From positions 4,218,501 through 4,282,500 of the forward strand of contig CM034143.1 in the NCBI GenBank assembly GCA_019914995.1: a DNA stretch of 64,000 bases, written 5' to 3'. Source of the stretch: Acanthochlamys bracteata. Taxonomy: Eukaryota; Streptophyta; Magnoliopsida; Pandanales; Velloziaceae. The position numbers were made by a program, and so were the translations under genes. Below are positions 31,371-64,000 of the stretch, one piece after another. The notes under the pieces are model-generated. The model made no database searches. It was not told the DNA's origin and saw only the letters and a program-made list of their open reading frames with translations. Positions within the stretch are counted from its first letter, which is position 1. Every line of letters starts with the position of its first letter.

Positions 31371-31382
31371 TTTTCTGATATC

Positions 31383-31413
31383 TAGGGTTTAGTGTGCTGG
31401 AAGATTAGGGTTT
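31383..31413 (-). promoter_or_regulatory. Two telo-box motifs in the CLOTHO 5' leader
   Basis: TAGGGTTT occurs at 31383-31390 and 31406-31413, which is AAACCCTA read on the gene strand. They lie within 45 bases upstream of the ATG. Telo boxes are common near transcription starts of plant genes for translation and RNA processing, where they are bound by TRB/PUR-alpha-type factors. Their role here is inferred from position only. Confidence 0.55.
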
Positions 31414-33788: not shown

Positions 33789-36700
33789 ATGTTTACCCGG
33801 ATATTCGGGAAACCCAAAGAGCAAGCTAATGCTCTGCAAACCCTCGATAAACTCAACGAGGTACTTTTTTTTAATTTTCTTTTTAAATTTCTGTAATTTG
33901 ATTGTAGTTGATTTGTGTATGTGATGTTCAAGTCTTCAAGATGTGTTTGTCTGGATGAAATTGTTTTGGAAGTGTTTCTTCGTAAGGATCACCAGTTTGT
34001 TAATGCCTTGTTATTTGTGATTATAGTTTCTGCAAGATGCCCGTTTGTAGTTTGACCCTCATGGTACTCGGATTTTATATTTGTATGACTTTAAGCTTCA
34101 CCGATCAAGTTATGTATACAACTTCCAAGTAGTTATTACTTCTTCAAGGATGGCATGCTATTTTTGTTTGGTATGTCAAAGTTATTGGATGCACGGTTGT
34201 AACCTAGGTTTAGCTAATCAAATTAGGGTGTGATTGACCTGAGGTTCTTCATTATGGGGTTTTCTTGTCATGATATTTCCTTGAAGGGACTTATATGTCC
34301 AATATTATATGAACCTTCCTTTGATGGTTTAAGTGTTTAAATAGAGTTCCACAGGATTCCTTAATGTTTTTCTTCAATCTTTCTTTTGAATGCTACCTTG
34401 TTATGAGGTTGGGCTTTTTCATATTTTACATTCAAGTGAGTTCCCTAACATTGTTTTTTTCATATAGTATTATTTTGTGTGTTTTTTCTATTATTTATTA
34501 CATAGTTCAACAGAAATAGTTCAACAGGACAGTCATTGCTAAAATACATCTATGTCAGCATTATCTATCTGGTGCTGTGTACTGAAATTGTAGGCCTTTG
34601 TCTCGTCTTATGAGCAGTTCTATTTTTGTGCTATCTCCCATAAGAAATCGTTTGTATTGAGACATCATTACGTCTACCTTTTATGATCTTAATGCATACC
34701 TAAAGTTTTAAAGATATAGATGATGCTCCTTTCTTTGCTCTAATCAACTGATATGTAGAAGGTTACACCCCTTTTTTCCATTGGTAATGTGGTATACATA
34801 CACCATGTGTTTTAGTGGATAATTTGATGTTTCACAAAAGGTTGAAACTATTGTTAGAGATTCTTTAATCTTACGATCTTGATCACCCTTTGAAAAGTTT
34901 GCTAATCAACTTTTTATTGAGATCAGAATTTTGCAGATGTGTGTTTATGTGATTGCTTTTGAACTTCTTTGTTCACTGTAGACACTTGAGATGCTAGAGA
35001 AGAAGGAAAAAGTTCTCCTGAAAAAGGTAGCTGCGGAGGTTGAAAAGGCTAAGGAGTATACAAGAGCAAAAAACAAAAGAGGTTTGCATCATAGACCATT
35101 CTCCTATGTTCAAAGGTTTGAATTATCTTTTCACTAGTACTACGCGAAATATCTTGTTAACAGAGGTAAATGTATCATGGTATCAGTGTTACGTTATTGC
35201 TTCCAGCTTCCAGTAGAACTGGATTCCAGCACATGTAGTATTGCAGGAATTAATAAGTTTTAAAAGTGTGGAATATCACGTGATTTCTGCGCTTCTTGAG
35301 TTTCGTTGCTCTTATATAACCTTCCCATCTCAATGTTTATTGTGATGAATTGCTTCCCATAAAAGATTGTATGGAGGGATTATCAAAAAAACAAAAAAAA
35401 AAAGATTGTATGAGGATGTTTGGTACCAAGTTGCACTTGTTGAGATTGACCTCCTTAAGCTTGTTGATTTAACATGTACTCATTCCTGAGTATTGTACTT
35501 ATGGCTGCATTTGGTGCAGATTGGTCAACCTTGTCCTTTAGAGTTTTGATTGAACTCCAAAAGTTCCTTCGCAATATTTATTATCATCTCTCTTTTCTGT
35601 TTACTATTATCGATATGTACTTAGTTGATAAATATTTTTTTAGTGGTAACTACTACTTTGTAAGATGTTTTGCAGTCAAAAATTGCGGTATAGAATATGT
35701 AATATTTGTGATTGGAAAAGGAAATTAGTCCATTTCACGAGATCAATTTGAAAATCTACCCAGATAAGAAGTCTATCCGTTCTATGTTATAAATTAGAAA
35801 TTTAGAGCCCAAAGTAATTATTTTGGAATTGGTATCTGCTCTTCATCAATCAGCTTTTAAACAAGGATGGAATGTTCTCTTTTTGGATTAAATCAAACTT
35901 ATTTTTTATATGTCACTTCTATCATTGACAGTAATATTTGTTTGTACTAGCTGCAATACAATGTTTAAAGAGGAAAAGGCTTTACGAACAGCAAGTTGAG
36001 CAGCTTGGGAATTTCCAATTGCGTATACATGATCAGGTGCAGTGTTAGGATACTGAAGCTCCCTTTCACTTGGGGCTTGTTTATCAACCCACAAACTCAC
36101 CTTTTTTTAAACTCACATTTAAACTAAAATAAACATAAAATTTAAAATAAATTTTTTCCGTCAAAAATTATTTTCAAATTTTAATTCTAAAACTCACTTT
36201 TTAATACTAGTTAAATATAAAAACTTATTTTTCATTAAATACTTTTAATTTTAAATTTATTTTTATAAACTCGCTTCCAAAAAGTGAGTTTAACATCAAA
36301 GTAAACGCACCCTTGATGTGTTCATTATCTCCACCTAAATTTTGTGTACCATGCACTTGGACTAATGAATTGGCATGATACAGATGATAATGCTTGAAGG
36401 TGCTAAAGCAACAACGGAAACTGTTGACGCATTGAGAACTGGAGCAGCAGCTATGAAGGCAATGCAAAAAGCAACGTGAGTAGCTAGTTTGGAGACAGAG
36501 ATATCTGCAACATAAAATTTGTTGTTGTTGTTGTGCACCACCATCTACCTTTTACCTTTTTTGTTGTTTGTTCTTGGTAAAATTTTGTTAATTGTAAGTG
36601 TTGTTGCATCAGCAGCCTGTCTTACAGTTTTTTCACAGCATCCTAAAATAGAGCATTTGGTATATTTATGCTGCAGTAATTCCAGGATTAGCGACTGAAC

Positions 36701-42949: not shown

Positions 42950-44035
42950 AAAGATTTCAAACATATTTTTTGATTGAGAAAAATATTATAAACATTTGTC
43001 CATATATTTAAGAAATATTAAATGAAGCAAAGATATAACATAAATTTATTACAGAAAGTTGGTGAAAATATAAAAAAATAAATTATATTAGTACAGCATC
43101 GCGGGGTGGCACACGATCACAAAAAATCACACAAATTCTATTAATAATTTACATTGTGAAATTTTTTAAAAGTAACTTATAATCCAACTAATATAGAAAG
43201 TGATCTCTTATATAAGACACTCGAGCTTGAGTCTTATTAAGAGAGTTCTTTAAAAAATTTAGTTTAAGGGATGACCTAGTATGAAACTGTGTTGATAAAT
43301 TCAAATTGATCCTGGGCAGTCAACTCTGTGCGACCCAAGTGTGACAATGTACCACCTTGCCACAAACACAAATCGCAAGTGCGATAAGTGCCACCTAAAT
43401 AGGGTTGCATAATGCAAGGTCACAAATACAACTCTTGCAATCCAAGCGCAAACGTTCCAGACTAGAACATGATGGTACTTAGTCGACCTGAGTTCGAGTC
43501 TAAATGAGAGAATGTACAACCATGTGTGACCATATGAGAGCAGAACATGGTTGCACTTGTGACCCTATGTTGTGTGATCATATGCACCCTTGTGTTTGTG
43601 GCAGGATCCCACATGGTCTCATGGGTCGCATTTCAGTCAAAGAGGGGTCGAATATGGTAGCACTTGGATCTAACATCACATATTCACACTACATCACCAT
43701 TTAGAATAAATTAAAAAAATTAGAAATTCTCTTATTGAAACTAAAATTCAGACATTTTACATGAGAGACACTATTGTTACCAATTTGATTACAAAATATT
43801 TTCGAAAGATTTCACAATATTTATTATTAATAATTTTTGCTACCTTGTGCGGAACTGTTTGAGTGAATTTTTTCATATATTTCACTATATTTTCACCAAC
43901 TTTCTCTAATAAATTTCTATTATATCAGACCTCTATTTGGTATTTATATTTCTTTATACATGTAGATAAATTTTATAATATCTTTTGAATGAAACGTGCC
44001 AGAAATCTTTTCAAATGCATTCAGAACAAATTTAG
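42950..44035. mobile_element. Foldback element with long inverted arms (MULE-like?)
   Basis: Two imperfect inverted arms of roughly 340 bases (about 42950-43290 and 43690-44030) flank about 400 bases of GC-richer DNA. The 19-mer GAAAGTTGGTGAAAATATA at 43054-43072 is found exactly inverted at 43886-43904, and many shorter matches continue the arm. The inner part carries further inverted words around CCACAAACACAA. No transposase was seen and the true termini are unclear, so the superfamily is open. One arm and the centre also occur at about 59300-60080. Confidence 0.6.
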
Positions 44036-44439
44036 TGCTGCTATATGCAAGTGTTTCCTAACAAAGTCGACTTTATATTCTTGGAAGAGGCATGATTGTA
44101 GTCAATTTCTGTAATACAGTATAATTTGTAATATCTTCAATTACAAGCTGCCAAAAAAACAAGTAAAAAATTAATCTACTACAAAAGTCTATTCAAAGTA
44201 ACAAATGATGGGAATATTTGCTTGTTAGAAGGTGAAAATTAATTTAAGACAATTAAATAATACTATACAAGCTATGGGAGCTTATCTACCAAAGCATCTA
44301 AATATTGATGATATGAACATTGACGGCAGAAACTTTAGTCCAGCAGTTCCTCCAGGAAAATATGACAATACATAGTAAGACAGCACCAGAACCTGTATAG
44401 AGTACATCCGTTAGCTACTCCTGACTTAACTACTGAATA

Positions 44440-44760
44440 CACTACTACAAATTGGATCTTTACCGATCTCAAAATTTAGTCGGTATTGGCATCAAAATCA
44501 GTCGGTAATACCAATTACCGACTGAAAATATGATAGTCGGTCATCCGTTGGCAATGACTGGTCGCTAAACGATTTACCGACTACACAATAAATTCAGTCG
44601 GTAATGAACAGTAAATTACCGACTAAATTTAAAATAATCGGTAATATCAGTTTATCGACTGATTTTGTCAGTCGGTAATTTTAGTTTACCGACTAAAATT
44701 TTCAGTAGATAAATTCTGAATTAGCGACTGAAATTCAGTAGGTAATTTTAATTTACCCAC
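44440..44760. repeat. Left subterminal repeat array of the CACTA element
   Basis: At least ten copies of a 10-12-base motif around TCAGTCGGTAAT or its reverse complement ATTACCGACTGA lie within 320 bases, in both orientations. In this superfamily such arrays bind the transposase. Confidence 0.85.
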
Positions 44761-45495
44761 TAAATTTTTAATCATTAAATTTGCCTAATAAAATTATAAT
44801 TAATATTTATTAAATGATAACAAAATCATTTATATTCATTAAAAATATATAGAACATTCACCAAGATTTACAATTACATATCCATTAAAGTCATCATCAA
44901 ATTAAATATACCAATTCATCAACCACAAAAATTTTCTCATAATTAAGTACAAATTTTTTCTCATCATTAAGTACTCCAAACAAGCTCTTTGTCTGGTCAA
45001 GGTACACTTCAAACAGACTCTTAGTCTTATTGTTGAGTACTCCATATGGTCATTGGCTTTGAAAATCATTATCTGGATACCTCTTGTCACACTCTTGTAG
45101 TTATCTCAATTTGCCGGAGATTGGAGGGACAAGAATTGCTTGGAGATTCCAACAGTACTTCAGATTAGGGAGCACCAAAACAGAGAAACAACGTGAGTTC
45201 TAGCTCCTGTACTAAAGCTGCATAAACAAAGACCGAACTCATCTAGCTGTCTGAAAATGGCAATGCAAGAACCAGCAACATCTATATATCTGAAAATTTT
45301 GATACGAGGATCAGCATATGAGATAACGAAAAATGGCTAAGATAAAACGAATAGCACCATGATTCATATACTTCATGCACACACCAGAAACTCAAACTTC
45401 CAATATGCAATTCCAGATAACAGAACAACCAATGAAGGCAATGCAGCTAACGCCAAGAAAGATACCAAATACAATGAGGATACTCTAACAAATAC

Positions 45496-45572
45496 CTCTT
45501 CTGTTCAGCTGCATAGAGCTTCGCTGCCATGGGACCAAGCTCTTCCTCTTGAGACGACCATGATGGGCTCCT
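45496..45572 (-). pseudogene. Captured exon fragment of a T-complex protein 11-like gene (second part)
   Basis: On the minus strand it reads RSPSWSSQEEELGPMAAKL and then YAAEQKR before a splice-donor-like AG/GTATT. It resembles the segment RSPS.SS.EEDL..RLEAKL.AAEQKR of plant TCP11-domain proteins. It follows, in the right order, the first captured exon at 46422-46541 in the same element. Confidence 0.75.
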
Positions 45573-46421
45573 AAATTCAATTCTGTCAAAGAAGAACTTC
45601 AAATCAAGTCTAAGCACTTTAATTCAATTCTACATTGATTCAGCAGTAACTTAGACTCATACATGAAGCCATATAAGATGGAATAAACATCCCGACTTCA
45701 AGAATGACTCAAGCTTAACCAGTCCCAACTTCCAAGAGGTTAAAGGAAATAGAAGTGATTCAAGCTATAAAATCCAAAGTAAGGCTCCAACAGGTAGAAA
45801 TTTTAAGCTAGGCAGAAGCTTTGCATAGAAAATTAGATGGATGAGGATCAAGATCTGAAAAACCTCCTAAACATAAATTTGAGCTTTTAGAAAAACGTTT
45901 TACTTTCATCTTTTGCAAACCAAAATAATAACAAGATCAAATCAGGAACTAAGGAAAGTACTTTTTTCTCTAAACTACTTGTTATTAAAATAAAAAATCT
46001 ACTAGAGGAACTGAGGAAATAGCTAACACAATCACAGGTGAAGATCGACCAGATTTCGATGTAATTAAGAAAAATCACAAGCTACACTGAAATTCAGGTT
46101 TGCAAACTATGCACAAGATCATAACGTAAAAAACTGAGTAACTCCCACAACTAAAACATGAGAAGAGGAAAACGACAGATTGCAAAACACCACTTAATCA
46201 CAAAAAATAAACTAACATGCAAATCTCTCAACAAATAGTTCTCAATCACGCTCGAAAGATCTCCTACAGCTATACTATACAAAATCAATCAAACCTAGAA
46301 TCAAGGAGTGCCTATTGAAGAAGGGAAACGGAAACAGTAGCCATAACAAAGCAATCACTATTTGTAGATAAATCGAGAACCAAAACCAAACATTAGAATC
46401 AAAATTCCAGCCCTAAATCAC

Positions 46422-46541
46422 CTGTCGTCTGAGATCAACGTCTCTAAGCTTAGCTTCGATCTCCTCAGCGCTGAGCAGCGGCGGGCTGCTCCGTCTTTCG
46501 ATTAACCTCCGGCGAATTCTCCGGGGAACCTCTCCCGGCAT
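46422..46541 (-). pseudogene. Captured first exon of a T-complex protein 11-like gene
   Basis: Forty codons starting at an ATG and ending in a good donor (CAG/GTGATT): MPGEVPRRIRRRLIERRSS, then PPLLSAEEIEAKLRDVDLRR and Q. Plant TCP11-domain proteins have P.R.LRRRLLE and EEIEAKLREADLRRQQFYE at the matching place. GC-rich leader-like sequence follows upstream to about 46985. It is only a piece of the parent gene, held inside the CACTA element. Confidence 0.8.
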
Positions 46542-46984
46542 TGATCCAACTGAAAAATCCAATGCAATTGTCTAGGGTTCAACTACTGAAGCTATAAGGT
46601 CACTTCATTCCCCAAATCAGAAACCAAACCAAATCAAATCAAAGCAAATAAAAAGAAAGGTTGGACTACTAGCTTGCTTCAGTTGGGGGCAAAAGTAAGC
46701 ATTCACCAGCAGCAGTTAGGAACACAGAGACTGCAGAAAGCGAGAGCCGGTCTGCTTCCTCTCTTCACCAGAACAAACAAAACCAAAAAAAATAAATTAA
46801 GGAGCAGGTAATCACTGTTGAGTAGGGAAGTATAGAATTAATTTATGAGGAGGATGTTGGCTACAGCAAGAATTGCTTACTTTCTTCGCCGGTCGTAGAT
46901 GAAACCTGCAGTCATGCGCCGGAGAAGGAAGCTAGGTTTTCGGCGAGCAAGAGCAAGTGAGAAAGAAATAAGAGTAGTACTGAT

Positions 46985-47408
46985 CGAACTGGTCAACTAG
47001 ACCTTACTAAAACTGATAAATACCGAATGATTAAAACATTCAGTCGGTAAACTTATCGACTAAAAATAAATTCAGTCGATAAAGTTACCGACTAAAAGTA
47101 TTTTCGGTCGGTAATTAATATAAATTACCGACTGAATTTATTTCAGTCGATAAAATTATCAACTGAAAGTAAATTCAGTCGGTAAATTTACCGACTAAAA
47201 GTATTTACAGTCGGTAATTAATATGAATTATCGATTAAATTATATTTCAGTCGATAAATAAACTGATTTACCGACCGATAGTCTAGTCAGTCGGTAAATA
47301 CAAAAAAAATATCGACTAAATTTTTTTCGGTCGGTATTGATAGATTTGCCGATTGTATTATTTCAGTTGGTATATTTTTAGTCACTGAAAATTATTTTCG
47401 TAGTAGTG
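46985..47408. repeat. Right subterminal repeat array of the CACTA element
   Basis: More than ten copies of the same motif as at the left end (TTCAGTCGGTAA, TTACCGACTGA and variants) lie in the last 420 bases before the terminal TAGTAGTG. Confidence 0.85.
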
Positions 47409-48270
47409 ATATGTATCAACTGAAACCAAATATATATGCGAATAATCACATTCCTGAGAAAACACATAATACGATCTCCATAAAAATATATAGGTTAACA
47501 TCTGTAAGATCAGATATGGTGCCCAAATTAATATAAGGAGATAACTAAGAAAAAGAAAAGCAACAAACGCAACTCAATATCTAGGACAAAAAATACGAGA
47601 CTTGATATATAGGAGGACTACACATTCAAACATAACCGAAGTATATGGTGCCCACCATGCTACCAGTAAAGCCTAGTGTGAAGGGAAGCCGCTGAGACAA
47701 ACCATACCAAGAAAATTGATAAGCAAAGATATACCCGGTGGTTCTTAAATCTTATGAACCTACAAAACATTACAGGGTGTACACATACTAAGAGATGCCA
47801 GAATTTCTTTAAACAGACGAGTTCTGTAATGCTAATGAAAGAAACAATCAAGAGGATCTAGTAAAGAATGTGTTTTTATCATTCTCTTGTCCAGGTATCA
47901 AATAAATTAACTTGCATAATTAGAACGAGTACTCTATCAACATGATCAAACCTAATTGTGTTTTGATTTGCTGGACTAATGAAGGCAGCATCTTGTATCT
48001 CTCTTACCTGTTTCTCAGCACCACGTCCGCATACTACTGTACTGAAAATCCACACAAGTACAGAAAATGTGGAACGTGTATAAGAACAGCGTCTTGTTAG
48101 TATCTAACTCAGGCATGTTCGTGGGTCTGGAATGATTGTTAGAACAAAGAGCTATCTTATCCATGGTGATAAGATCAAAGAATACAACATTCAAGCTTAA
48201 TACTTCAGTTCTCAGGGAGGAAGCTGGTTTACAACCAATTAAACATCATAAGCGAAACAAAGAAGATTAC

Positions 48271-48507
48271 GGGTGCGTTTTAAAATACTTATAAAATAAA
48301 ATTTTTTTAAAATAAAAAATATTTTTATTTTTTTAAAAAATAAATTCTATTTTTTTACTTTCAAAATAATAATAAAAATATGTAATAAAAAGATCTCATT
48401 ACGTAAAATTTTTCTATACTTATAAATTTTTAAATAAATTTTCTAAATATTTATAAAATATATATTAAAAAATATAAAATTAAAAATTAAAAAACACCGC
48501 TAGCACC
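48271..48507. mobile_element. AT-rich MITE-like block, family B, in the SFT2 pseudogene
   Basis: It begins GGGTGCGTTTTAAAATAC and ends ACACCGCTAGCACC, with almost only A and T between. It is absent from the intact SFT2 arm. A large deletion of SFT2 intron-2 sequence coincides with it, so it marks a rearranged junction and no target duplication is visible. Confidence 0.6.
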
Positions 48508-49607
48508 TCTTTTGTGTTCCACATGTAAGTTTTGTGTTCTCTATAAATAATATATGGATGGGACAACGAAAGGATTACCTCTTTTGAAAACATGTGAAGC
48601 AACTGATTGTTTGGTCCCTTGAGAGCAAAGAATGAGCCAATAATAAAGACACAACAAAGGGTAAAGGCAATTGCAAACAGCAGCAGCTCGAAGTACATGA
48701 GAGACTTCCCAGAAATAACATTCCTGGTAGAAGACCGAAAGCTCCCAGGCAGTTCTTTCACACCTTTGGAAAAACTATATAAATTAAGAAAGTGAATATC
48801 AAATGTGGTTATATCATTTTCAACTGCCACCAAAATTTGTCATTGTTATGTCTTCTGTGCAAAAAGAAAGCAACCAGTTTGTTACTGTTAAAAGGGATGA
48901 CGCAGCTTATATCTGAGCCCAGCAAAGCATAGTATTTGCAACTGAGCCAATTCCATAGTACAATCCTGCAATGCATAACTAGTCTATAGATGAAAAGAAT
49001 GGTAAACCCATTGAGATATTATTCACTTGTGGGGCAGAATCTAGCATCATAAAACATGATTTGAAATGAAGTTTTCAGAAGGACATAAAAAACATTGGAC
49101 ATGAAAGAAATATAGGTATCTGCCATGAAAAAGAGGCAACTTTCTTTTATAGTTTGTTCGATAATGAAAAGTTGTCCAAAACTATAAACTCATAAAGCAT
49201 ACAATAATCGCTAATACCTCTTTTTGAATGATACTAATAAGACCTAAAGAATGTAGTTGGAAATTCATTGGGTGTAGCAGGCTTGTATTGGATAGCACCT
49301 TAATAGTTTTTTTTCAATATCTTCATCTGTGATAAGTTCCAAACTAAGTTAACAAATAGGACTTTCAAGAGCTCATCATCTATCAAATAGGACTTCTGTA
49401 GGACCTTTATTAAACTTGCGAGTTTCCAAAATCTAAAATCATCAATATCATGTTAAAAAGTGAGGCACTGGGCTACTGTGAGAAACCATAAATTAGCACC
49501 ACCAAGTACATGCGCCATAGCAGGAAGTTGAATTGGAAATTATCAGCTTGAGCGTGGGGAAAGAGTGGAATCATGATGTTACTTGAGATTGGAGTCATGA
49601 TTCCAGG

Positions 49608-50168
49608 TAATGATTTCTGTATTGGAGATTAAATAATTGTATTTTCTATTAAAAAAAGTTTGGAGTAAATAAGGTAAGTGTGTTTTATGATATCTTTGTT
49701 AGTTTTAGTAAGCTTTCCTTTTATGATGATCATTTATTAATTTAATAAACATGCTTTCCTTCTCCAAAGAAAAAAAAGATTTCTCAGGTTGAAAAATATG
49801 GCAAGAAAAAAAGGATTTATCTATAATATCAACAATTTAATAATTCTTTCTAAAAACAATTTAACGAATATGGTAATGTTTTATATATATAAGGAATTGC
49901 GTTGAAAAACTTTATCTCCTCTACCAACAGAGAACCTGCATGCAAGTCGGGTGTTTCTTTTTGTGGAGGTTCGGCTATTGATGATCAACGAGATTAATTA
50001 AAAGGTGAGAGAATTTATTTAAAAAACTTAATCTTCTCATGCTATCTATTTGCTTGTGTTTAGGCTATCTAATTCTTGAATTAGTTATCTACAGCTTTAA
50101 TCTTTTACATGTTGAATATGTGCAGATAGTTCTTCAGACTACCGGCAGATATTAATATATTGGCTTTC
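49608..50168 (+). promoter_or_regulatory. Upstream region of the MADS-box gene
   Basis: AT-rich DNA between the left duplication arm and the MADS gene. A TATA-like run (TTATATATATAAGG) lies at about 49881-49894, about 280 bases before the ATG. A possible leader intron is bounded by AAAG/GTGAGA near 50005 and TGTGCAG near 50125. Both are predictions from sequence only. Confidence 0.45.
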
Positions 50169-51248
50169 ATGGCACGTCACAAGCTTCAACTCAAGTACGT
50201 AGAGAACAAGAAGGAAAGAACAACCAAATTTAAGAAGAGAATATCAGGCCTAAGGAAAATGGCTTCCAATTTATCGACCCTCTGCGGTATTGAAGTTTTA
50301 CTGATTTGTTTTGGAGTCAACGGAGAAGTTGAGACATACCCAGAAGACAAGAGCAATCTCAAGAGTGTTATCAGTAGGTACCAGAACATAACCGATGAAC
50401 GGAAGAACAAACACAAGTGTAATTTGTCAAGCTCTCTTACTAAAGAGATTGAAAACATGAAGTCTGCCTTGCTAGCTAATCTGAGTTCAATTGTTGAGCT
50501 GATCGATAAAAGGATCCCTTTAGTCATGGATCGTATCCGTGACGAATACGAGAAATTGCATCAAATGAATCCTTCAGCATTAAGCGTCCCGATCTACTAT
50601 TTTCCACCTATGAGTACTTACACTGGCGATGAGTTAGGAGGGAACGGATTAAGGAACAATGGGAGGTTGCAGAATTTCTTGCCGGACGATTACTCAACTA
50701 GCTCATCAGTCATGGATTTGCCGATGTTGCCTGCTGCTGATGAAAGCCAGTCTTTATGCGAACAGATTTATGATCCAATACCATTAATGCAGTACGATCC
50801 TTACACTGGACAAATGTTTTATAATGATCAGCAACAACTAGTCGCTGCAGCACAGTTTCATAATATTCTCGACAATGGTGAACAACGAATTGTCTCCTAT
50901 GATTCAGGATTCATCAACAGTAACAATAAGTTGCCGTCGTTTTGCAGAGAACTTGACACTGCAGATACTGTTTTTGTTGATGCATATACAGAGGGTGCTA
51001 ATGCTAGTACAACTAACATAGTGATCAACAACGTTGATCCGCTTCAATCAAGGAGTACTCCATTCGAAGAACCTTTTGATAGTAGGATTCTGCGGGATAA
51101 TGGAAGTTCGCTGCTAGACTGTTTGGTTCCTGCATCTTTAACTGATTTCAACTTTCAAGTGAAGAACAATAATGTTGATTTGCTACGTAATTCATCAGAT
51201 CAATCTAAGCATGATCAAGAGAGGCACGAAGATCATCAGCATCATTAA
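50169..51248 (+). CDS. Type I MADS-box transcription factor (AGAMOUS-like, M-gamma/M-beta type)
   Basis: A single-exon gene of 359 codons. The frame is open upstream to 50160, but the first ATG is at 50169 and starts directly with the MADS domain (MARHKLQLKYVENKKERTTK, FKKRISGLRKMASNLSTLCG, IEVLLICFGVNGEVETYPED). Residues 1-60 are the DNA-binding and dimerisation domain. There is no K-box, and the lack of introns and the LSTLCGIEV signature place it in type I, as in PHERES1/AGL80 relatives active in the female gametophyte and endosperm. The C-terminal two thirds are low complexity, rich in Asn, Gln, Asp and Ser, ending KHDQERHEDHQHH. The frame is intact. A broken relative is at 63415-63578. 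The gene sits in the spacer between the two duplication arms. Confidence 0.9.
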   Translation: MARHKLQLKYVENKKERTTKFKKRISGLRKMASNLSTLCGIEVLLICFGVNGEVETYPEDKSNLKSVISRYQNITDERKNKHKCNLSSSLTKEIENMKSALLANLSSIVELIDKRIPLVMDRIRDEYEKLHQMNPSALSVPIYYFPPMSTYTGDELGGNGLRNNGRLQNFLPDDYSTSSSVMDLPMLPAADESQSLCEQIYDPIPLMQYDPYTGQMFYNDQQQLVAAAQFHNILDNGEQRIVSYDSGFINSNNKLPSFCRELDTADTVFVDAYTEGANASTTNIVINNVDPLQSRSTPFEEPFDSRILRDNGSSLLDCLVPASLTDFNFQVKNNNVDLLRNSSDQSKHDQERHEDHQHH

Positions 51249-53307: not shown

Positions 53308-56300
53308 ATAACAGCACTGCTGGTGATTTGAACCCTTGATTTCGCCTTTGGAGAAGGGTACCTTACCACTCAGTCGATGAGTGCTTGGTGTAGAGAAAGG
53401 AATTGCTAATAGTGTTACCTAGAAATGAAAGCTCTTTTAAAAATGTTTAGAAGCATGATGACTTGGGAGCTTTCAGACGTGCCTTTGAATGCAATGTTGA
53501 AACTAGTGTAATATTTTTGTACATGATAACATACACAAATGCATTAGGATGTTTCACAAAGGTAAACTCTTAACATTTTGGAGCCAATTTCAATATAAAT
53601 GGGTATGTAATGGGAAGGATTCTTGGAGATAAACTTTCACAAAAGGAATAAGGAATGATAGTTCGTGAGAAAATATAAAAGATGGTGTTCACTTGCTATG
53701 CTACCATTAAATCACTATTAGTAATAAGATTGAACAGGTGTGTAACACCTAAGTGTGTATAGATTCGGTTATGCTACTATTTTGAGGCAAAATTGCTACT
53801 CAAATAGGGTATTTCAAAGAGCAGTGCTATTTATTAGGGCTTTTTGATGCTGATGTATATCAGGGTTGATGCATCAATACAATGTGGGATGAAAATTTAT
53901 TAACTTTAGCAGTATTAATCCTTTCCAATTATGTAGACCAACCATACACATCAAGTTTGAAGCTCCTTATGTCTAAAACAACCTTGCTATGCAGTAGTTT
54001 TTCCCTAAAAACTATGAGGCATACAAAGTATCAGCATTAGAAGGTTTTTATGAATTTAATTTATCACTTTTCTTTCTTAAATTCAATCATTTGGGTTCTA
54101 AGTAAGATATTATAATTTTGTTGCATATGAGGAAATTTATTAGAGATTAGTTTACCTGTAATTGTTCAAAAGGTTACCTGGTTCTGATGGAATGTTTGTA
54201 AATTATGAGAATAGGCTCAAAAGAGAATGTAATTGGCTTAGATTTAGAAGGAAGATGGGGGATTGGATGTATATATATGTTAGCTTTCAGCATGGCAATC
54301 TGAACTATTGGCTACCCATGTATTTTTTTTATTTTATTATTATTATTTTTTTGCTTAAGTTTGAATGAGAATTATTTATTGAGTCCCTCTACCTTATAAA
54401 GTTCATAAGCTCTAATCCAAATTGTCATTCTGCACTCCCAAACTCTCCACAAGTTTTGCTTTAAAAATTATAATAGAGGCAAGTTTTGTGATGGGAGAGA
54501 TACATAGTCATGTCGTACCTTGACTTCTTTTCAATAAAAAACAGTTCAGCCTTGTCTACTAAATGGGGTCAGCAGCATAGATCCTTTACCCAATTGTGCC
54601 TTGTTATGAACAAATCTTTAGCCGAGCTAGTTACGCTCGCTTACAGTTAACCAAGTGAACTTAGTGTCAATCACCTTAGACCTAGTTCAAAGTTGGCACT
54701 CCCAGCAACCTCTGCTACCTTTAAGACTACTACTCCTGCCAAAAGATCTCAAGATTCCACTATTTATTAACAAGACGATAATTGAAACTTCTTCTAGACA
54801 CCTTTGAGTCCAAATGGTGAATGATTGTGGGGACCTTTGCACTTCGTCATGCAATTAAGAACCACCTTACCAAAACTGGTGGGACTAAGCTTCCTCTCGC
54901 TTCAATAACCAAATTAATCTCGCAAAACCCTACATTAGCAAGTTGTCCATATCACATCATTTGCCTGGAATCATGACTCCAATCTCTAGCAACTTCATGC
55001 GCATAGACACTCAACCTGTGGAGCTGACTGACACTCTTTCCTCCAACCTTGATACCTCCTTTTCTTCACCCACTCTCAAGCTGATATTTTCCAATTCAAC
55101 TTCATGTTATGGAATGTGCTTGGTGGTGCTAATTTATGGTTTTTCACAGTAGTCCAATGCCTTACTTTTCAACATAATATGATGATTTTAGATTTTGGAA
55201 ACTCGCAATTTTTACAAAGGTCCTAAGAAGTCCTATTTGATTGATTTGAGCTCTTGAAAGTCCTATTTGTTAACTTGGTTTGGAACTTATCATGGATGAA
55301 GAGATTGAAAAAAACTATTAAGGAGCTATCCAACGCAAGCCTGCTACACCCAACGAATTTCCAACTACATTCTTCAGGTCTTATTAGTATTATTCAGAAA
55401 GAGGTATAAGCGATTATTGTATGCTTTTGAGTTTATAGTATTGGACAACCTTTCATTAACGAACAAACTCTAAAAGAAAGTTTTCTCTTTTTCATGTCAG
55501 ATACCTATATTTCTTGCATGTCCAATGTTTTTTATGTCCTGAAAACTTCATTTCAAATCATGTTTTATGATGCTATATTCTGCCCCCCAAGTGAATAATA
55601 TCTCAATGGGTTTAACATTCTTTTTATCTATATGCATTGTAGGATTGTACTCTGGAATTGGCTAAGTTGCAATATTCTGTTTTGCTGGGCTCAGATATAA
55701 GCTGAGTCATCCTTTTTAACTGTAATAAACTGGTTGCTTTCTTTTTGCGCAGAAGACATAACAATGACAACATTTGGTGGTAGTTAGGTGTAGAAAATGA
55801 TATAACGCCATTTGATATTCGCTTTCTTAATTATATAGGTTTTCCAAAGGTGTGAAAGAACTACCTGGGAGCTTTCGGTCTTCTACCAGGAATGTTACTT
55901 CTGGGAAGTCTCTCATGTACTTCGGGCTGCTGCTGTCTAGTGGTTTCTTCTTTATTTTCATTTCATTCAGCATGTTCCTACCAGTCATGGTTCTGATGCC
56001 TCAGAAATTTGCAATTTCCTTTACCCTTGGTTGTGTCTTTATTATTGGCTCATTCTTTGCTCTCAAGGGACCAAAGAATCAGTTGCTGCACATGTTTTCA
56101 AAAGAGGTAATCATTTCTTTGTTCCATCCATTTATTAATTATTGAGAACACAAAGCTTACATTGTCTAATTCTTGGACATTGGCTTCCTTTGATTCTTTG
56201 ACGACAATGCTGAACAACTCTGTTCAATGACACTTGCTATACATAGTGGTTAAAGCTTCAAATTCTTGCTTCTTTAGCTAGCTGCAATTGTTGGAAATTG

Positions 56301-58294
56301 CTTCTGGATTGAACCTTTTAATTTTTTTGGGTTTATTGCAGTTCTTTTCTACCTATTACAATTATCTTTCACCTTAAAACAGCTAAATTGTTCACTCGTG
56401 GTTGCCGCAACTAAAACCACCCTAAATTTGTATCTGTAAGTTAAACACTAACGGAAAATCATAGATACAAAAGCTAGTGGTCACTTGAGCGGTTAAGATT
56501 CAAAAGTCTTTCTTGAACAAGAGGTGACGATTTTTGTTGATTAAATGATAATTTTGTAAAATGGAATGGTTTCATTTGTTCCTAGCCAAGCTGAATAATA
56601 AATAAACTCGTTTTTCCTAGATAGTGACTTCCAATAATGTGCTTCACATTTGATTAACTGATCTGATCATTCAAGGTGAATAACAGATTTGATTATGCTT
56701 TTTATGCATTGTCATGAGCATACTTGTTACAGTTAACCACTGCATTTTGCATTTCTTTAAATGATTTTGTTAACCATTGAAGACTATTTGTATAAGAAAG
56801 CATTTGTAGAAACTTTATCTCCTAAGAGATATGGTATATTATCCTCAAAATTATCCTTATCCATTAGTTGACATGTTTACTAGCCGGTTAGTATCACCGA
56901 AATGGTTACCTGCACGTCATTAGTTGTCCCGAGACTTTACAAGGAAGTTGTGGGACAACTAAATTTGGTTTTGCAATGCTAATACTGCTTAAAAGTCTCA
57001 AGTATGAAGTGTAATATTCGCAGAACTTCAACTTTTGCTAAGGGAAAGGCATAGTCTAAATAATGTATTTCACATTATTGCTTTTATCATTTAACGAGCA
57101 GCCAATGCAGTCTCGGGACGGCTAGCATGAAACATTTTTATGTGTTATAATATACACTAACCAAACCTTTTCGATTATCATTTGTTGGGATGCATCCTAT
57201 TAAGACTCGTTTCATTGAACAGAATTATCAGTACAAACTTCTTTGTTTCAGTTATGATGTTTAATTGGTTGTAAACCAACTTCCTCCTGAGAACTGAAGT
57301 ATTAAATTTGAATGTTGTATTCCTCTAACGCCATGGATAGAAGATAGCAATCATTCCATACCCAAAAACATGTGTGAATTAGAAACTAACAAGATGCTGT
57401 TCTTATACATGTTCCACATTTTCTATACTTGTGTGGATTTTCTGTATGGTAGTTTGCGCACATGGTGCTGAGAAGCAGCTAAGAGAGATAGAAGATGCTG
57501 CCTTCATCAGTCTAGCAAATCAAAACACAATTAGTTTTGATCATGTTGATACTCGTTCTAATTATGCAAGTTAATTTATTTGATACCTGGACAAGAGAAA
57601 AATAAAACACATTCTTCACTAGATCCTCTTGATTGTTTCTTTCATTAGCAATAGCAGAACTCGTCTTTTTAAAGAAATTCTGGCATCTCTTAGTATGTGT
57701 ACACCCTGTAATGTTTTGTAGGTTCATAAGATTTAAGAACCACAGGATATATCTTTGCTTATCAATTTTCTTGGTATGGTTTGTCTCAGCGGCTTCCCCT
57801 CACACTAGGCTTTACTGGTAGCATGGTGGGCACCATATACGTCTCTGTAATTCTACACAGTTACGTTCTATCTGTTTTCTTCTCTGTGCTTCAGGTATTG
57901 GATTAATTTCAGTTATGTTTGAATGCGTAGCCGTCCTATATGTCAAGTCTCTTATCTTTTGTCCTAGATATTGAGTTGTGTTTGTTTCTTTTACTTTTCT
58001 TAGTTAATCTCCTTATATTAATTTGGTCACCATATCTGATCTTACAGATGTTAACGTATATATTTTTATGGTGATCCTATTATGTGTTCCTCAGGAAATT
58101 TGATTACTTGCATATATATTTGGTTCAGTTGATATATATTCAGTAGTTTAGTCAGGAGTAGCTGACGGATGTACTCTATACAGGTTCTGGTGCTGTCTTA
58201 CTATGTATTGTCATATTTCCCTGGAGGATCTGCTGGACTAAAGTTTCTGTCGTCAATGTTCATGTCATCAATATTGAGATGCTTTGGTAGATAA
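52314..58294 (+). CDS. SFT2: SFT2-like vesicle transport protein (Got1/Sft2 family)
   Basis: Four exons join in frame to 232 residues: 52314-52528, 55839-56106, 57790-57894 and 58184-58294 (TAA 58292-58294). SFT2/GOT1 proteins are tetraspanning Golgi membrane proteins that assist fusion of endosome- or ER-derived vesicles with the Golgi. The N-terminus is cytosolic and contains SLLDDWNSYASARS, GIDLEAAVRSANNKVSGTF and the junction FSKGVKELPGSF. Four hydrophobic segments follow: LMYFGLLLSSGFFFIFISF, FAISFTLGCVFIIGSFFAL, LTLGFTGSMVGTIYVSVIL and VLSYYVLSYFPGG. The GP-K-Q turn (KGPKNQLLHM) and the C-terminal ILRCFGR are family hallmarks. The start ATG gives MLAWFSSGG, matching the short W-containing start of plant relatives. 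Intron 1 (3.3 kb) carries a SINE and a MITE-like block. Exons 2-4 are duplicated in inverted orientation at 44-49 kb as a pseudogene. Confidence 0.95.
52751..52993. mobile_element. AT-rich MITE-like block, family B, in SFT2 intron 1
   Basis: It begins GGGGATGTTTGGGAGTGC and ends CCCTCCCAAACACC, so its ends are inverted repeats (GATGTTTGGGA against GGTGTTTGGGA). The interior is AT-rich. No target duplication was verified. Confidence 0.6.
53222..53388 (-). mobile_element. tRNA-derived SINE with a trinucleotide tail
   Basis: On the minus strand it starts CCAAGCACTCATC, has an A-box-like stretch TGAGTGGTAAGG (53372-53361) and a B box GGGTTCAAATC (53335-53325), then runs into a long (ATC)n(ATA)n tail. 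It is flanked by the exact 10-base direct repeat TGTAGAGAAA at 53212-53221 and 53389-53398, the target duplication of a retroposed insertion. The body without the tail is only about 80 bases, so it is a very short SINE or a retroposed tRNA-like sequence. It lies antisense in SFT2 intron 1. Confidence 0.88.
53224..53307 (+). repeat. Compound microsatellite (TAT)18(GAT)10
   Basis: Eighteen TAT units (53224-53277) are followed without interruption by ten GAT units (53278-53307). This is the expanded tail of the SINE described at 53222-53388. Confidence 0.97.
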
Positions 58295-58553
58295 GCTCAC
58301 ATAGCTTGTATATTATTTATTATTATTTTTTAATTGTCTTAAAAAAATTTTGACCTTCTTTAAACAAGCAAAAATTTCCCATCATTTGCTACTCTCAAAT
58401 AGACTTTTGTGGTAGATTAATTTTTTACTTGTATTTTTGGCGGCTTGTAATTTAAGAGATTACAAATTATACTTTATTACTATAATGAATTAAAATTATG
58501 CTGCTTCCAAGAATATAAGTCTGAGTTTGTTGATAAACACTTGCATAGAGAAG

Positions 58554-58841
58554 TAAACATGTAAAAATGGGCTAAGTCAAACGGGCTAGTTTGCGGCCTG
58601 GTAAGTCGGCCCGGTCATTGGTTTGCCTGATTTAGTGAATAGTGATAGGATCGGGTCGGCCTCGATCCTACGGGATGGGCCGATATAGTCAGCCTTTTGG
58701 ACGGCCCGTCTATTCGGGTATTGTTCATATTAATCTGTCAATATTTACTATTGATCAAATTAGTATTAACGGTTGATTATATTAAATTTTAATTAAAAAA
58801 TATTTTTATAATATTAAAAAATAATTTTTAATAATAAAAAT

Positions 58842-58874
<33 letters not shown>

Positions 58875-59021
58875 ATAAAATAAAAATATAAATCCGGTAA
58901 ATAAGTTGTGCCGAGTCGTGAGAAATGAAATTGGGTTGGACTGGTTCGGCACGGGTGCTTTACTCAAATCGGGTCAGTCTGGTCCGGTCTATTAAACTTT
59001 TCGCCAATTTTTGCACCTATA
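58554..59021. mobile_element. Short non-autonomous hAT-like element
   Basis: About 468 bases with ends TAAACATGTAAAAATGGGC and GCCAATTTTTGCACCTATA, imperfect inverted repeats of the TAGGGGTGTAAATGGGC type found in plant hAT elements. Subterminal parts are rich in CGGCCCGGT and GGGTCGG words. The flanks TAGAGAAG (58546-58553) and TGGACAAG (59022-59029) agree at six of eight positions, as for an aged 8-bp target duplication. The inverted paralogous arm lacks it, although the absence there covers a somewhat larger stretch. Confidence 0.65.
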
Positions 59022-59099
59022 TGGACAAGCATGAATTTGTTTAGGAAGGGTGTTAAAATAATATCATAACATAGTTGGTTGTCAGAATGGATTTTGCAG

Positions 59100-60080
59100 A
59101 GGCGTAAAACCATGGATTTTTTTTAATTAAATAAACTTTCCCTCTCACTTTGTTTTTTAAGCTATTTTTTCAAAATAAGTTTTTAAGTTATCTTTTGGTG
59201 AGAGAATATCAAAATATCGTTCACTTAGTTTTTAACCCTAATATAAACTTTCTAAAAGATTCAAAGTTGATTTTTATTTTATGTTGCAGCGTGATTTTGA
59301 ATGCATTTTGAAAAGATTTTCAACACGTTTTATTCAAAAAATATTATAAATGTCTTTCTATATGTTTAAAAAAATATTAATACCAAATAAAAATCAGTTA
59401 TAATAAAAGTTTATTAGAAAAAGTTGGTAAAAATACACTGAAATTTATGAAAAATTCATTACACAATTCTGCACAAGATAGCAAAATTTAATTAATAATA
59501 CATATTGTAAAATTTTTCAAAATATTTGTAATCTAATTGGTAACAATAGCAGCCTTTCATATAAGATACTTGAATTTGAGTTTCAATGAGAAAATTTATT
59601 CTAAATGATGACCTAGTGTGGATATGTGCTGTTAGATCCATGTACGATCATATTGGACCCTCTTTGACTCTATTGTACCCTGCCACAGACACAAGGGTGC
59701 ATATGATCGCACAACAAGTGCAACCTTAGGGCTTGTTTACCTACCCCTTCAAACTCATTTTTTTTAAAACTCATTTACAATACAAAAATACATTACAAAA
59801 TTAAAATAAATTATTTTTATTAAAAAAATTATTTTTTAAAATTTAATTTTAAAACTTATTTATAATATAAGATAATTATAAAATTTTATTTTTTATTAAA
59901 TATTTTTAATTTTTAATTTTATTTTTTAAATTCACTTTCGAAAAATTGAGTTTACACCGCGGTTAACACGCCCTTAGTCACTATCATATGGTCACACATG
60001 GTCGTACATTCTTTCACTTGACTCAAACTCAGGTTGACTAAGTACAACCACGCTCTAGTTTGGAAAGGTTGCACTTGGCT
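59100..60080 (+). repeat. Foldback-element arm and centre, second copy
   Basis: From about 59200 the sequence matches the arm of the foldback element at 42.95-44.03 kb (for example AAAGTTGGTAAAAATA near 59420) and continues into its centre (CCACAGACACAAGGGTGCATATGATC near 59690, given here only as a short core CACAAGGGTGCATATGATC). The second inverted arm was not found after 60080, so this copy is one-sided. Confidence 0.6.
59729..59973. mobile_element. PIF/Harbinger-like MITE, family A, copy 2
   Basis: A 245-bp AT-rich element starts GGGCTTGTTTACC and ends GGTTAACACGCCC; the ends are inverted repeats. It is flanked by TTA (59726-59728 and 59974-59976), the preferred target duplication of PIF/Harbinger elements. 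The paralogous position near 43.55 kb lacks it. Confidence 0.85.
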
Positions 60081-62947
60081 AAATACAACCACGTTCAATG
60101 TCTTCAGAGGAAGGTTCTCGAGTGTTGGTCCAGTGATGGACTCGGTTCCAAGGTGACCACTCCTGAAAGGATTTCAGAACATAAATGGTTCCTCTTGTGG
60201 TATTGGACATATAGAGAACTCAAGTACTTGATGCGGATAATTTAGAGTCATGGTACGCAAAACAGAATAATTATTACTGACACGCTAAGAGGATTGATTC
60301 TATAATATTTGTTCAAATCAGGTGTTCAACTCCTGGCTTCTGATGGTTCACAGGAAGGAATTGAATAACATAAGAAACCTACTTTTGTGATGAAGCACAA
60401 TTTAAGAGCTCATGTCCTTGTAGTTGCTGATGTACTTGATTCAGGTGATTCATATTCATGAGTTGAAGATCAGGGTATTGACATTGTTTACTGATGCTGC
60501 GAGTAAATATTAGCACGTCTGTAAAGCAACCTGGCTAATTGAATGACTGTTCTGTCAAGCTCTTTTCAACTTGCAGATTGTCCCCTCTTCAAGCAGGTTT
60601 CAGATAATAACTGCTAGAAGGATACTTTTTGGTGCAATTGCACTCAAATGGAGCTAGAGATATAGGTTCGGCCTTTTAAACATCATGATTTTGAATAATT
60701 ACTGTTCTCCGTTTGATTGCTTTTATTTTGGTTCCTGGCCTCTGAATTAAGATACTAAAGATAGATTGCTGAACACCTGATTTCCGGCATTTTGTGGGAT
60801 CCTTTAAAAAGCTTAAAAGATCAAACTTATGCTTGTCTTTCTTCCCCTTACTTGCTGGACAGGCATGTACGAGACATCTTTAAATAATTTCATGGGCTGC
60901 TTGGTGTCATTTGGCGATGTAAAGGAGTTCCCTGATTAAGATTGACAGCTCATGGCGATCTGTGTTTAGCAGCTTTTAAAGTCCTGCAGAATTTGGCGTC
61001 CGAACTTCTTTCCCTCTTATGCGTCGTAAATCTACTTTGCTGCTCCCACCTATGCTGCAAACAGTGCGCAAATCAGAGGAAGAAATTCATATATGGTTTT
61101 TTACTTTGGAGACTTTTGGAGCTTTGATTTCGATCCAAACCATGACTAAGCTAGTTCCTATAGTAGGCTGGCATTCTTATAATGCTAATAAGAGCAGAAG
61201 GCATCAACATTTCTTGGCAAATAATTATACAGCTACGATTATAAAGAAGCACCCGCTATGTTGCGATAAATTATGAGCTTAATTGACATCCAAGATTACA
61301 TGCAGAGATTTAAGAGAAGAGCTTTCTATTAGCACAAAAAACATGTAAAAAGTGTTCTTCGTTCAATGTATTTCTTTTGTTCATCTGGAAGTTTCTTCAA
61401 TCACATTTTGTTGAGAATCTAACTAAGATTGTGTTTTGGAATTTATCGCATAAGTAAAAGCATTTATGTCATGAAATACACTTCCAATATACAACAACAA
61501 TCGTCCTCCTAAATCATCCTAGGAAATCACACATAGGATGAAATAAAATACAAAGACCGTAGATAAAGATCTATCTAGAGAAGTTACGACTTCCTACTAT
61601 CGCTGCAGTTGCAAATCTTCATCCGTAAAAAAACTCGCACTCAAAACTTTGGATTCCTTTTAGAAGTCAGTGCGTGCGTCTTCATTTTCCATAACTTATA
61701 GCAGTAAATTTTATGTTGCCGAGTAGTAAACCTAACTTGAAAAGCACTAAGAAAAAACTTGCCCACTTCAACCTTTCAAAGATAGGAAACAGAAAACAAC
61801 ATATTGAGTGACTTCACAAACGAAGCCATCATCTCCCAAAAAATTTTGTTGGTGTTAGAATAACACAATAACGAGATAATCCTCTAAATTGCTGCATAGC
61901 TTTTTTTCAACAACCTTAACAATTATGATGTTCTAATCCTTAAACACAAAACAAAACTCAGTCGAGGAGCAATTATATACAAGCAATTGATATGCTAAAT
62001 GTATATAAAGTTAGACACACACACGGGAAGAAAAATAAATAAAGCAATTTTCCATAAAATTTCATTCACCAGTAAACTTTTGTAGAACCTGCATAAATTT
62101 GCCCTACACAAGATTTATATTTTCTAGCAAAAAAACTAACAGATTAAACGCACTAGAATCAACACCGCAAGAAAAAGAAACAAATCTGAATCCCATGGCG
62201 TGAGTAGTGCAGGTAGAAGAAGGAAACAACCGAACCAAGAAAGAAGCAATCGGATCAAAAAAATAGTTTATGGATAATGAGTCTTTGAAGTGAAGTAGGA
62301 GAGATATAAACTTGAAGAAGAAAAAAGGAAGATAGGATTTTCACTGAAGTTGTTATTAGGCTTGGGTCTCACGCATGACTTTTTTTTCTTTTATTTTTTT
62401 CAGTTGGAAATTTTTAGAAGATTTTACCACCGTTGCTTATATGTTTTTTCATTTTTCTTAGAAAATTTAACTTTTGTTCTTCTTTTTTGTTTATCTCGTA
62501 GAAAAATAAATAAAAATCTAGGTGAATATTTCATTTTCAAAAAGATAATAATAAATACAATAAATAAATAATTAAAAAACCTATTGAATTTTGAATTTGA
62601 ACCCAGATGACCACATCCATCTCAGCAATGCTAATAAAAATTCTAGCAAGCGGCAATCAAGACCAATGCATGCACTAGCAAAAACAACAAAACATTAATC
62701 AATTACCGAGTAAATCAATATATATTTAAAATCTATATTAATCAAATACATCTGAAGCATTTTAGTTAACAGCTCTTCCCATAAGAAAATTACAGATAAA
62801 ACAACATATATATAACAACTGTGTACAGCAAAAAGATCATAAATGTTACAAATTGCTCAGCAATTGCTAGTTAAGGTAAGGTACAAACTGCCCCCTATAA
62901 ACTGTCAAGGTTTTTAATTATATCAGTATTATACAACAGAATACCCC
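60081..62947. other. Non-coding region, no gene recognised
   Basis: Several short frames at 60942-61276 show no family resemblance. Sequence complexity at 60.1-61.3 kb is higher than in AT-rich spacers, so an untranslated or decayed gene is possible. From 61.4 to 62.6 kb it is A-rich on the plus strand. Nothing can be assigned. Confidence 0.4.
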
Positions 62948-63414
62948 CACTACTTAAAAATTGGTCAATTAACATAAACTAGCCAAGTTGGGTTAGTTAA
63001 CTGCTGTGCTAAAAACTACCTAAAGGACGAATCAATACAATCAATATATGAGAATGGCGCTACTTAGCATCGCTATAGCGTCAGATCCAGCTGCAAATTG
63101 TAGTGAGGTGTTTTTTAGAGCTGGCATAAACTCACCAGTGAAATATTTTGGAGCAATTTCACTAAACTCCAACATGGTGTAATCCATTGGATATGGTAAT
63201 GGACTCGCTTGCGGAAAGGTGAGTGTTACTGATATCACTGCCGGTGACATCAGATCTAAATATAAAAGTTGATCAGTAATTAATTTATCGATTAAAATTT
63301 ATTGATTTTTTTACCGATCAATAATTTTTCAATCGGTAATTATATTTAGTGACTGAATTATGAATATTGTCGATTAATTTAGTCAGTCATTAATTTTAAT
63401 ATTTCTAATAGTGG
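62948..63414 (-). mobile_element. Small CACTA-like element (ends only)
   Basis: On the minus strand it begins CACTATTAGAAATATT at 63414 and may end TTTTTAAGTAGTG at 62948. The 63260-63400 part has degenerate CGGTAAT/ATTACCGAT motifs like the subterminal arrays of the CACTA element at 44.4 kb. The flanks (GTC and GGG on the minus strand) do not form a matching 3-bp duplication, so the left end is uncertain. An unassigned open frame on the minus strand (63250-63041, containing DYTMLEFSEIAPKYFTGEF) lies inside. Confidence 0.5.
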
Positions 63415-63578
63415 ACCCTCCCTGATGGATGAAACCATACAAGCTGAACCTGTACGTTGAAGAGGGTTGAAAGATTATGCACCATCTTCTTTAGCCCCTC
63501 TATCCTCTTTCCAAAAGTGACTCTTCTAGCCTTCTCATCCTCTTTGAATTGCTTATCCACATAACAATGGCGACTAAT
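63415..63578 (-). pseudogene. Type I MADS-box gene fragment cut by a CACTA-like end
   Basis: On the minus strand it reads SRHCYVDKQFKEDEKARRV, then TFGKRIEGLKKMVHNLSTLF and NVQVQLVWFHPSGRV, a type I MADS domain similar to the gene at 50169 (KKRISGLRKMASNLSTLCG). The expected start codon is ATT (63578-63576) instead of ATG. Reading stops just after GRV, where sequence beginning CACTATTAG starts and adds two codons and a stop. No continuation of the MADS protein was recognised beyond. It is a broken gene or a truncated copy. Confidence 0.8.
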
Positions 63579-63832
63579 TGCTGCAAGAATAAAGCAATGT
63601 AAGATACTTCCTATGGGTATAGTTAAGTTAAGATAAACACTAAATCTATAAGAAGAAATCTCATAGAGTAACTTTAAAGCTTAATTTCCGTTCAATGTAG
63701 TCAAGATTCTGTATTGTTTCCAAAAGCTTATGCCTAACACTTAGCCTTGAAGCACAAAATTGTCAGTACAAGTAATAGAAGCTTTTATCGGGAAAAAAAG
63801 ATAATAAAAGCCTGATTATGATTACGACATAA

Positions 63833-64000
63833 AGAGCGTGTTTACCAACACCTTAAAATTTCACTTTTTTTAAACTCATTTTCAACATAAAAATATACAA
63901 AAATTAAAATAATTTTTTTTATCAATAAAATTTTTTTAAATTTAAATTTAAAACTTACTATAAATATATAATTAATATAAAATATTATTTTTTATTAAAT
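63833..64000. mobile_element. PIF/Harbinger-like MITE, family A, copy 3 (cut by window edge)
   Basis: It begins GAGCGTGTTTACCAACACC and continues with AAACTCATTTTCAACATAAA and AT-rich sequence colinear with the copies at 36.1 and 59.7 kb. The right end lies outside the window. Confidence 0.65.

What the first reader, a model, noticed from the sequence alone, without database searches (positions are those of the whole stretch)
44440..47408. Pack-CACTA: a CACTA transposon that captured two exons of a T-complex protein 11-like gene
Seen: exact CACTA termini, subterminal arrays and an ATA duplication enclose 120 bases coding for MPGEVPRRIRRRLIERRSS and SAEEIEAKLRDVDLRRQ with a good splice donor, and 0.9 kb further a second fragment with RSPSWSSQEEELG and YAAEQKR. 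Known: plant TCP11-domain proteins carry these motifs in this order, and CACTA elements can transduplicate gene pieces. Inferred: exon order and intron-like spacing were kept, so genomic DNA rather than cDNA was captured. If transcribed it could make a chimeric or regulatory RNA against the parent TCP11 gene.
Basis: partly seen in the sequence, partly recalled or inferred. Interest (0 to 1): 0.78.

Follow-up and report, generated by a model that had tools for sequence, protein, structure and literature searches.

The report
CACTA transposon carrying captured gene pieces
A 3-kb plant jumping gene that seems to have picked up the broken front end of another gene landed in an intron of a decayed gene copy; the twin copy nearby still shows the site as it was before, and the arrangement is a clear but ordinary example of a known kind.

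Summary
Window 44440-47408 (2969 bp) is a non-autonomous CACTA element: exact 9-bp inverted ends, ATA target duplication, motif arrays inside both ends. The host is an SFT2/Got1-like pseudogene copy; the element sits in its last intron, 47 bp before the last exon.

Inside, on the minus strand, lie two TCP11-like coding fragments (46571-46422 and 45572-45496), each ending at a GT, with 849 bp of intron-like DNA between them. This fits captured genomic DNA, not cDNA. The TCP11 name rests on recall: no plant database is held here and Pfam gave no hit. The fragments are decayed: a stop precedes the first in frame, and only 1 of 13 AG sites tested gives an open in-register join.

Kind: Pack-CACTA, a new member of a known kind; soybean Tgm-Express1 is a close parallel. 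A chimeric or regulatory RNA is possible but unsupported. One curiosity: the first fragment and the SFT2-like last exon are in phase.

The parts
44440..47408 (-). non-autonomous CACTA element, 2969 bp; minus is the strand of the captured fragments and of the host pseudogene
   Evidence: empty site in the paralogous arm
44437..44439 (.). target site duplication ATA, left copy
47409..47411 (.). target site duplication ATA, right copy
44440..44448 (+). left terminal inverted repeat CACTACTAC
47400..47408 (-). right terminal inverted repeat GTAGTAGTG
44440..44780 (.). left subterminal array: 10 TCGGTA/TACCGA motifs
47009..47408 (.). right subterminal array: 11 TCGGTA/TACCGA motifs, partly a tandem duplication of 100 nt (87%, spacing 103)
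46422..46571 (-). TCP11-like fragment 1 (TIALDFSVGSMPGEV...DLRRQ), preceded by in-frame TAG, followed by GTGATT
   Evidence: TCP11 likeness by recalled probe only
45573..46421 (-). intron-like spacer of 849 bp between the two fragments
45496..45572 (-). TCP11-like fragment 2 (RSPSWSSQEEELG...AAEQK), followed by GTATTT
   Evidence: recalled probe
44282..44392 (-). last exon of the SFT2/Got1-like pseudogene copy (arm A) whose last intron holds the element
47629..47694 (-). penultimate exon of the SFT2-like copy, 3' part and donor lost
48579..48770 (-). internal exon of the SFT2-like copy (Pfam Got1, below cut-off), with a 24-codon in-frame deletion relative to arm B
58137..58139 (+). empty site (single ATA) in the last intron of the paralogous SFT2-like gene, arm B

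Best explanation
A non-autonomous CACTA element of the Pack-CACTA type. An ancestor enclosed a stretch of genomic DNA from the 5' part of a plant gene, most likely a TCP11-like gene: first coding exon, intron 1, second exon and the start of intron 2. The element was then moved in trans by a CACTA transposase and inserted, with an ATA duplication, into the last intron of a truncated, inverted SFT2/Got1-like gene copy. Shown: boundaries, duplication, empty site, host gene copy, no transposase family in Pfam, two coding-looking fragments each followed by GT. Inferred: TCP11 as source, genomic capture, trans-mobilisation, and fusion of neighbouring elements as the capture route. The captured pieces are most likely passive, decaying cargo.
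For: Exact ends and duplication; subterminal arrays; empty site in the inverted paralogue; no Pfam match in 6 frames except one below its cut-off (Rotamase_3, E 0.011, 16.7 bits against 22.5); both fragments on the minus strand, each followed by GT, with 849 bp of non-coding DNA between them; with a recalled TCP11-like probe they are the two best of 2887 six-frame peptides of at least 15 aa in the window, scores 116 and 70, third best 47, against a maximum of 53 for 40 shuffled probes. Capture of exons plus introns by a CACTA element is described in PMC1947982 (passages); the neighbouring-insertion model in PMC8903248 section 9.
Against: The parent gene and other copies of the element were not found; the window holds no other copy. 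The residues just before RSPSW do not match the recalled family, so the 5' part of exon 2 is missing or decayed. The origin of about 0.7 kb left and 0.4 kb right of the fragments is unknown.
Confidence: 0.88

Rival explanations
1. A CACTA element whose internal DNA comes from another gene, or from its own degenerated genes; the likeness to TCP11 is misjudged.
For: No Pfam or database hit for the fragments (both fragments; fragment 1 only; a pattern from fragment 1); the recalled probe may be biased because it was typed after reading the fragments.
Against: Two separate fragments match the probe in order and on the same strand, and each match ends at a GT.
Confidence: 0.06
2. The place is a native gene (a TCP11-like gene or pseudogene) and the CACTA-like ends are accidental.
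For: CACTA ends with a duplication arise by chance in 4 of 60 simulated windows.
Against: The inverted paralogue lacks exactly 44440-47408 plus one ATA; the subterminal arrays sit just inside both ends.
Confidence: 0.01
3. The element is expressed as part of a chimeric or regulatory transcript: TCP11-like exons joined to the SFT2-like last exon, or small RNAs against the parent TCP11 gene.
For: Captured fragments and host copy share the minus strand; fragment 1 ends in phase 0 and the host's last exon begins in phase 0, giving an open 40+36 codon chimera from MPGEV; Tgm-Express1 exons are spliced in this way (PMC1947982 passages).
Against: No exon 1 was found in arm A; the copy has a 24-codon deletion and lost a donor. 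The captured frame has an in-frame stop upstream, and of 13 AG sites within 200 nt before fragment 2 only 1 gives an open in-register join (AG sites further off were not tested). No expression data.
Confidence: 0.05

Closest known systems
Pack-CACTA elements of Arabidopsis (Catoni et al. 2019, not held; known here through PMC8903248 passages and sections 9 and 15, and PMC13317346 passages)
   Same: CACTA ends, duplicated target, no recognised transposase, gene-derived DNA inside.
   Different: Ends read CACTACTAC, whereas PMC8903248 used CACTACAA as query for Arabidopsis; 3-bp duplication, whereas PMC8903248 reports 5 nt for its rice and maize CACTA sets; no second copy known.
Tgm-Express1, soybean CACTA element in intron 2 of F3H1 (PMC1947982, passages)
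   Same: CACTA element with exon and intron pieces of host genes, sitting in an intron of another gene.
   Different: Tgm-Express1 is 5.7 kb with five gene fragments and demonstrated chimeric transcripts; here one source gene is recognisable, the host is a pseudogene copy and no transcript is known.
CACTA elements with captured gene fragments in Chenopodium (PMC8978399, passages)
   Same: Host gene fragments inside CACTA elements, subterminal repeats, 3-bp duplication.
   Different: The capture cases in the passages seen lie upstream of a 'TAD' conserved domain of the element (read by me as transposase-associated); this element shows no transposase family.

Membership tests
CACTA superfamily | inverted ends beginning CACTA | tested here: met
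   9 bp exact, CACTACTAC
CACTA superfamily | 3-bp target site duplication (PMC8978399) | tested here: met
   ATA on both sides, single ATA in the empty paralogous site; the 5-nt duplication stated in PMC8903248 is not met (GAATA against ATATG)
CACTA superfamily | subterminal direct and inverted repeats over several hundred bp | tested here: met
   10 and 11 motifs in 341 and 400 bp, direct and inverted repeats
Pack-TYPE element (PMC8903248, section 15) | 300-15,000 bp between ends | tested here: met
   2969 bp
Pack-TYPE element (PMC8903248, section 15) | no match to a transposase | tested here: met
Pack-TYPE element (PMC8903248, section 15) | BLAST match over 50 bp, E below 1e-5, to a host coding sequence | not testable with these tools
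   no plant coding sequences or host genome held; only a recalled protein probe
Pack-TYPE element (PMC8903248, section 15) | not a singleton in the genome | not testable with these tools
   no genome held; no second copy in the window
plant TCP11-like gene (source of the fragments) | Tcp11 domain, PF05794 | tested here: inconclusive
   no hit for either fragment; the fragments are N-terminal and, as recalled, outside the domain
plant TCP11-like gene (source of the fragments) | N-terminal motifs in order (recalled) | tested here: inconclusive

The most novel reading that the evidence does not exclude
The element has made a young chimeric gene: a captured TCP11-like leader and exon 1 drive a minus-strand transcript that is spliced past the element's left end into the SFT2-like last exon 47 bp beyond it, in frame, giving a peptide of about 76 residues that joins a TCP11-like N-terminus to an SFT2-like membrane tail.
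Probability: 0.03. Interest if true: 0.5.

Novelty: new member of a known kind. Interest (0 to 1): 0.25.

Why it matters
It is a clean case: insertion into one arm of an inverted duplication leaves an empty site in the same window, so boundaries, target duplication and the likely order of events (duplication first, insertion later) can be read without a second genome. With the parent gene in hand it would show exactly which genomic segment a CACTA element captured, splice sites included. If expressed it would add to the shown cases of exon shuffling by CACTA elements, such as Tgm-Express1. As it stands it is ordinary for a plant genome.

Tried and rejected
Search of the window's own genome: none is held. 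Pfam on 6 frames of the element and the two fragments: no TCP11, no transposase; the Rotamase_3 match is below its cut-off and was discounted. Relatives of fragment 1 (fragment 2 was not sent) in viral contigs and genome contigs: 252 and 588 pattern matches, none confirmed by tblastn. A degenerate DNA pattern for 14 residues of fragment 1, widened by recall: 0 in both collections and 1 in the window at up to 3 mismatches, the fragment itself. PDB by sequence with fragment 1: one insignificant match, E 0.99. Pfam Tcp11 in one plasmid record and the 14 control genomes that go with such a search: 0 of 1 and 0 of 14, so no yardstick there. Literature listings: 20 of 86 papers seen; 25 of 27; 20 of 694; 15 of 58; 10 of 406; no title or abstract start seen there links TCP11 with CACTA capture; more than that was not checked. 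No paper prints any of four motif words typed from recall. cDNA capture was rejected because intron-like DNA and GT sites are present. A native gene was rejected by the empty site. For the relic at 63270-63413 a left end was looked for by eye in 62400-64000; CACTACTT at about 62949 was considered and dropped for want of a duplication and an array.

Full report
What is there. The stretch 44440-47408 is 2969 bp long, begins CACTACTAC and ends GTAGTAGTG, and is flanked by ATA on both sides. Ends plus duplication alone are only suggestive: 4 of 60 simulated windows contain such a pair. Just inside the ends lie arrays of TCGGTA/TACCGA, 10 in the left 341 bp and 11 in the right 400 bp, while the 2228 bp between them contain none even of the looser form. 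Part of the right array is a tandem duplication (two copies of 100 nt, 87%, spacing 103).

The empty site. A self-comparison of the window shows an inverted partial duplication, 43442-49614 against 54956-60078, in 8 matching blocks. The alignment stops at 44439 (partner 58137) and resumes at 47409 (partner 58139). Joined flanks with one ATA align through the partner without a break at that point. The element is therefore a real insertion, its boundaries are exact, and the 3-bp duplication is confirmed. In 5 of the 8 blocks, 173 of 2259 ungapped sites differ, K2P 0.081; the 3 blocks left out (77.5, 84.8 and 88.6%) include the least similar, so this is an underestimate for the arms as a whole. 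With recalled plant rates of 4e-9 to 1.3e-8 per site per year the script gives 10 to 3 million years for the duplication, a rough figure, and an upper bound for the insertion if it followed the duplication. Precise loss from the other arm is possible but less simple.

The host. The duplicated DNA is an SFT2/Got1-like gene: Pfam Got1 E 7.6e-13 (49.4 bits, cut-off 24.6) in arm B and 3.6e-4 (21.5 bits, below the cut-off) in arm A. Arm A shows 48770-48579 with a 24-codon in-frame deletion, 47694-47629 without the 3' part and donor, and the last exon from 44392; the probe found no exon 1 there. Arm A is a truncated pseudogene copy on the minus strand, and the element sits in its last intron, 47 bp before the last exon.

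The cargo. On the minus strand, fragment 1 reads TIALDFSVGSMPGEVPRRIRRRLIERRSSPPLLSAEEIEAKLRDVDLRRQ (46571-46422) and is followed by GTGATT; a TAG lies directly before it in frame. Fragment 2, RSPSWSSQEEELGPMAAKLYAAEQK(R), is 45572-45496 and is followed by GTATTT. They are 849 bp apart. Of 13 AG sites from 200 nt before fragment 2 to its start, 7 are in register with its frame, and only 1 of these, with 8 pyrimidines among 15, gives an open join; the other 6 in-register and all 6 shifted sites meet stops. AG sites further off were not tested. A faithful TCP11-like product is thus unlikely.

Is it TCP11? No plant sequences are held by these tools. Pfam gave no hit for the fragments; as I recall, the Pfam domain of the family lies further towards the C-terminus, so this is not a fair test. 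Scans of viral and prokaryote collections with fragment 1 or a pattern from it were negative, which says little about a plant gene. The probe was typed after I had read the fragments, so the scores are a lead, not a test. On recall, homology begins at IALDF, upstream of the methionine, so MPGEV is unlikely to be the parental start.

How it works. Most likely the element is moved in trans by a CACTA transposase that recognises the ends and arrays; Pfam sees no transposase family in it. Capture probably went through two neighbouring elements mobilised as one, the model set out in PMC8903248 section 9 and PMC13317346 (passages); nothing in the window tests this. Intron-like DNA after both fragments argues for capture of genomic DNA. 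The cargo is most likely inert and decaying.

Possible expression. Cargo and host copy share a strand. Fragment 1 ends in phase 0 and the host's last exon starts in phase 0, so direct splicing gives an open chimera of 40 codons from MPGEV plus 36 codons of the SFT2-like end; a matching phase has about one chance in three. The region upstream on the minus strand (about 46990-46900) is pyrimidine-rich, like a plant 5' leader (sequence; inference). In soybean Tgm-Express1, a CACTA element in an intron of F3H1, captured exons are spliced into many chimeric transcripts (PMC1947982, passages). No expression data are available for this locus.

Verdict. Observation confirmed and strengthened; interpretation right in kind, with the TCP11 name unproven and the regulatory idea untested. 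A new member of a known kind, of modest interest.

Noticed in passing
43442-49614 and 54956-60078: Inverted partial duplication of an SFT2/Got1-like gene; the minus-strand copy is a truncated pseudogene.
   Followed up: yes
50130-51248: MADS-box open reading frame (Pfam SRF-TF E 3.3e-14) in the spacer between the arms of the duplication, outside the duplicated DNA.
   Followed up: no
63270-63413: Relic resembling a CACTA right end: three TCGRTA/TAYCGA motifs and a terminal CTAATAGTG; no matching left end or duplication seen.
   Followed up: partly
44918-45044: Short direct repeats inside the element, left of the fragments, of unknown origin (families D9 and D14).
   Followed up: no
18799-19135 and 21035-21373: Direct repeat of about 340 bp, 78.6% identical.
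   Followed up: no
36069-36292 and 59725-59954: Direct repeat of about 230 bp, 78% identical; the second copy lies in arm B in a stretch of about 260 bp (59717-59980) that has no counterpart in arm A, so it may itself be a small insertion.
   Followed up: no
4425-6875 and 27254-31388: Open reading frames of an LRR receptor-like gene and of an EFTUD2-type U5 snRNP GTPase, both minus strand; with the MADS gene they suggest plant nuclear DNA (inference; organism not identified).
   Followed up: no
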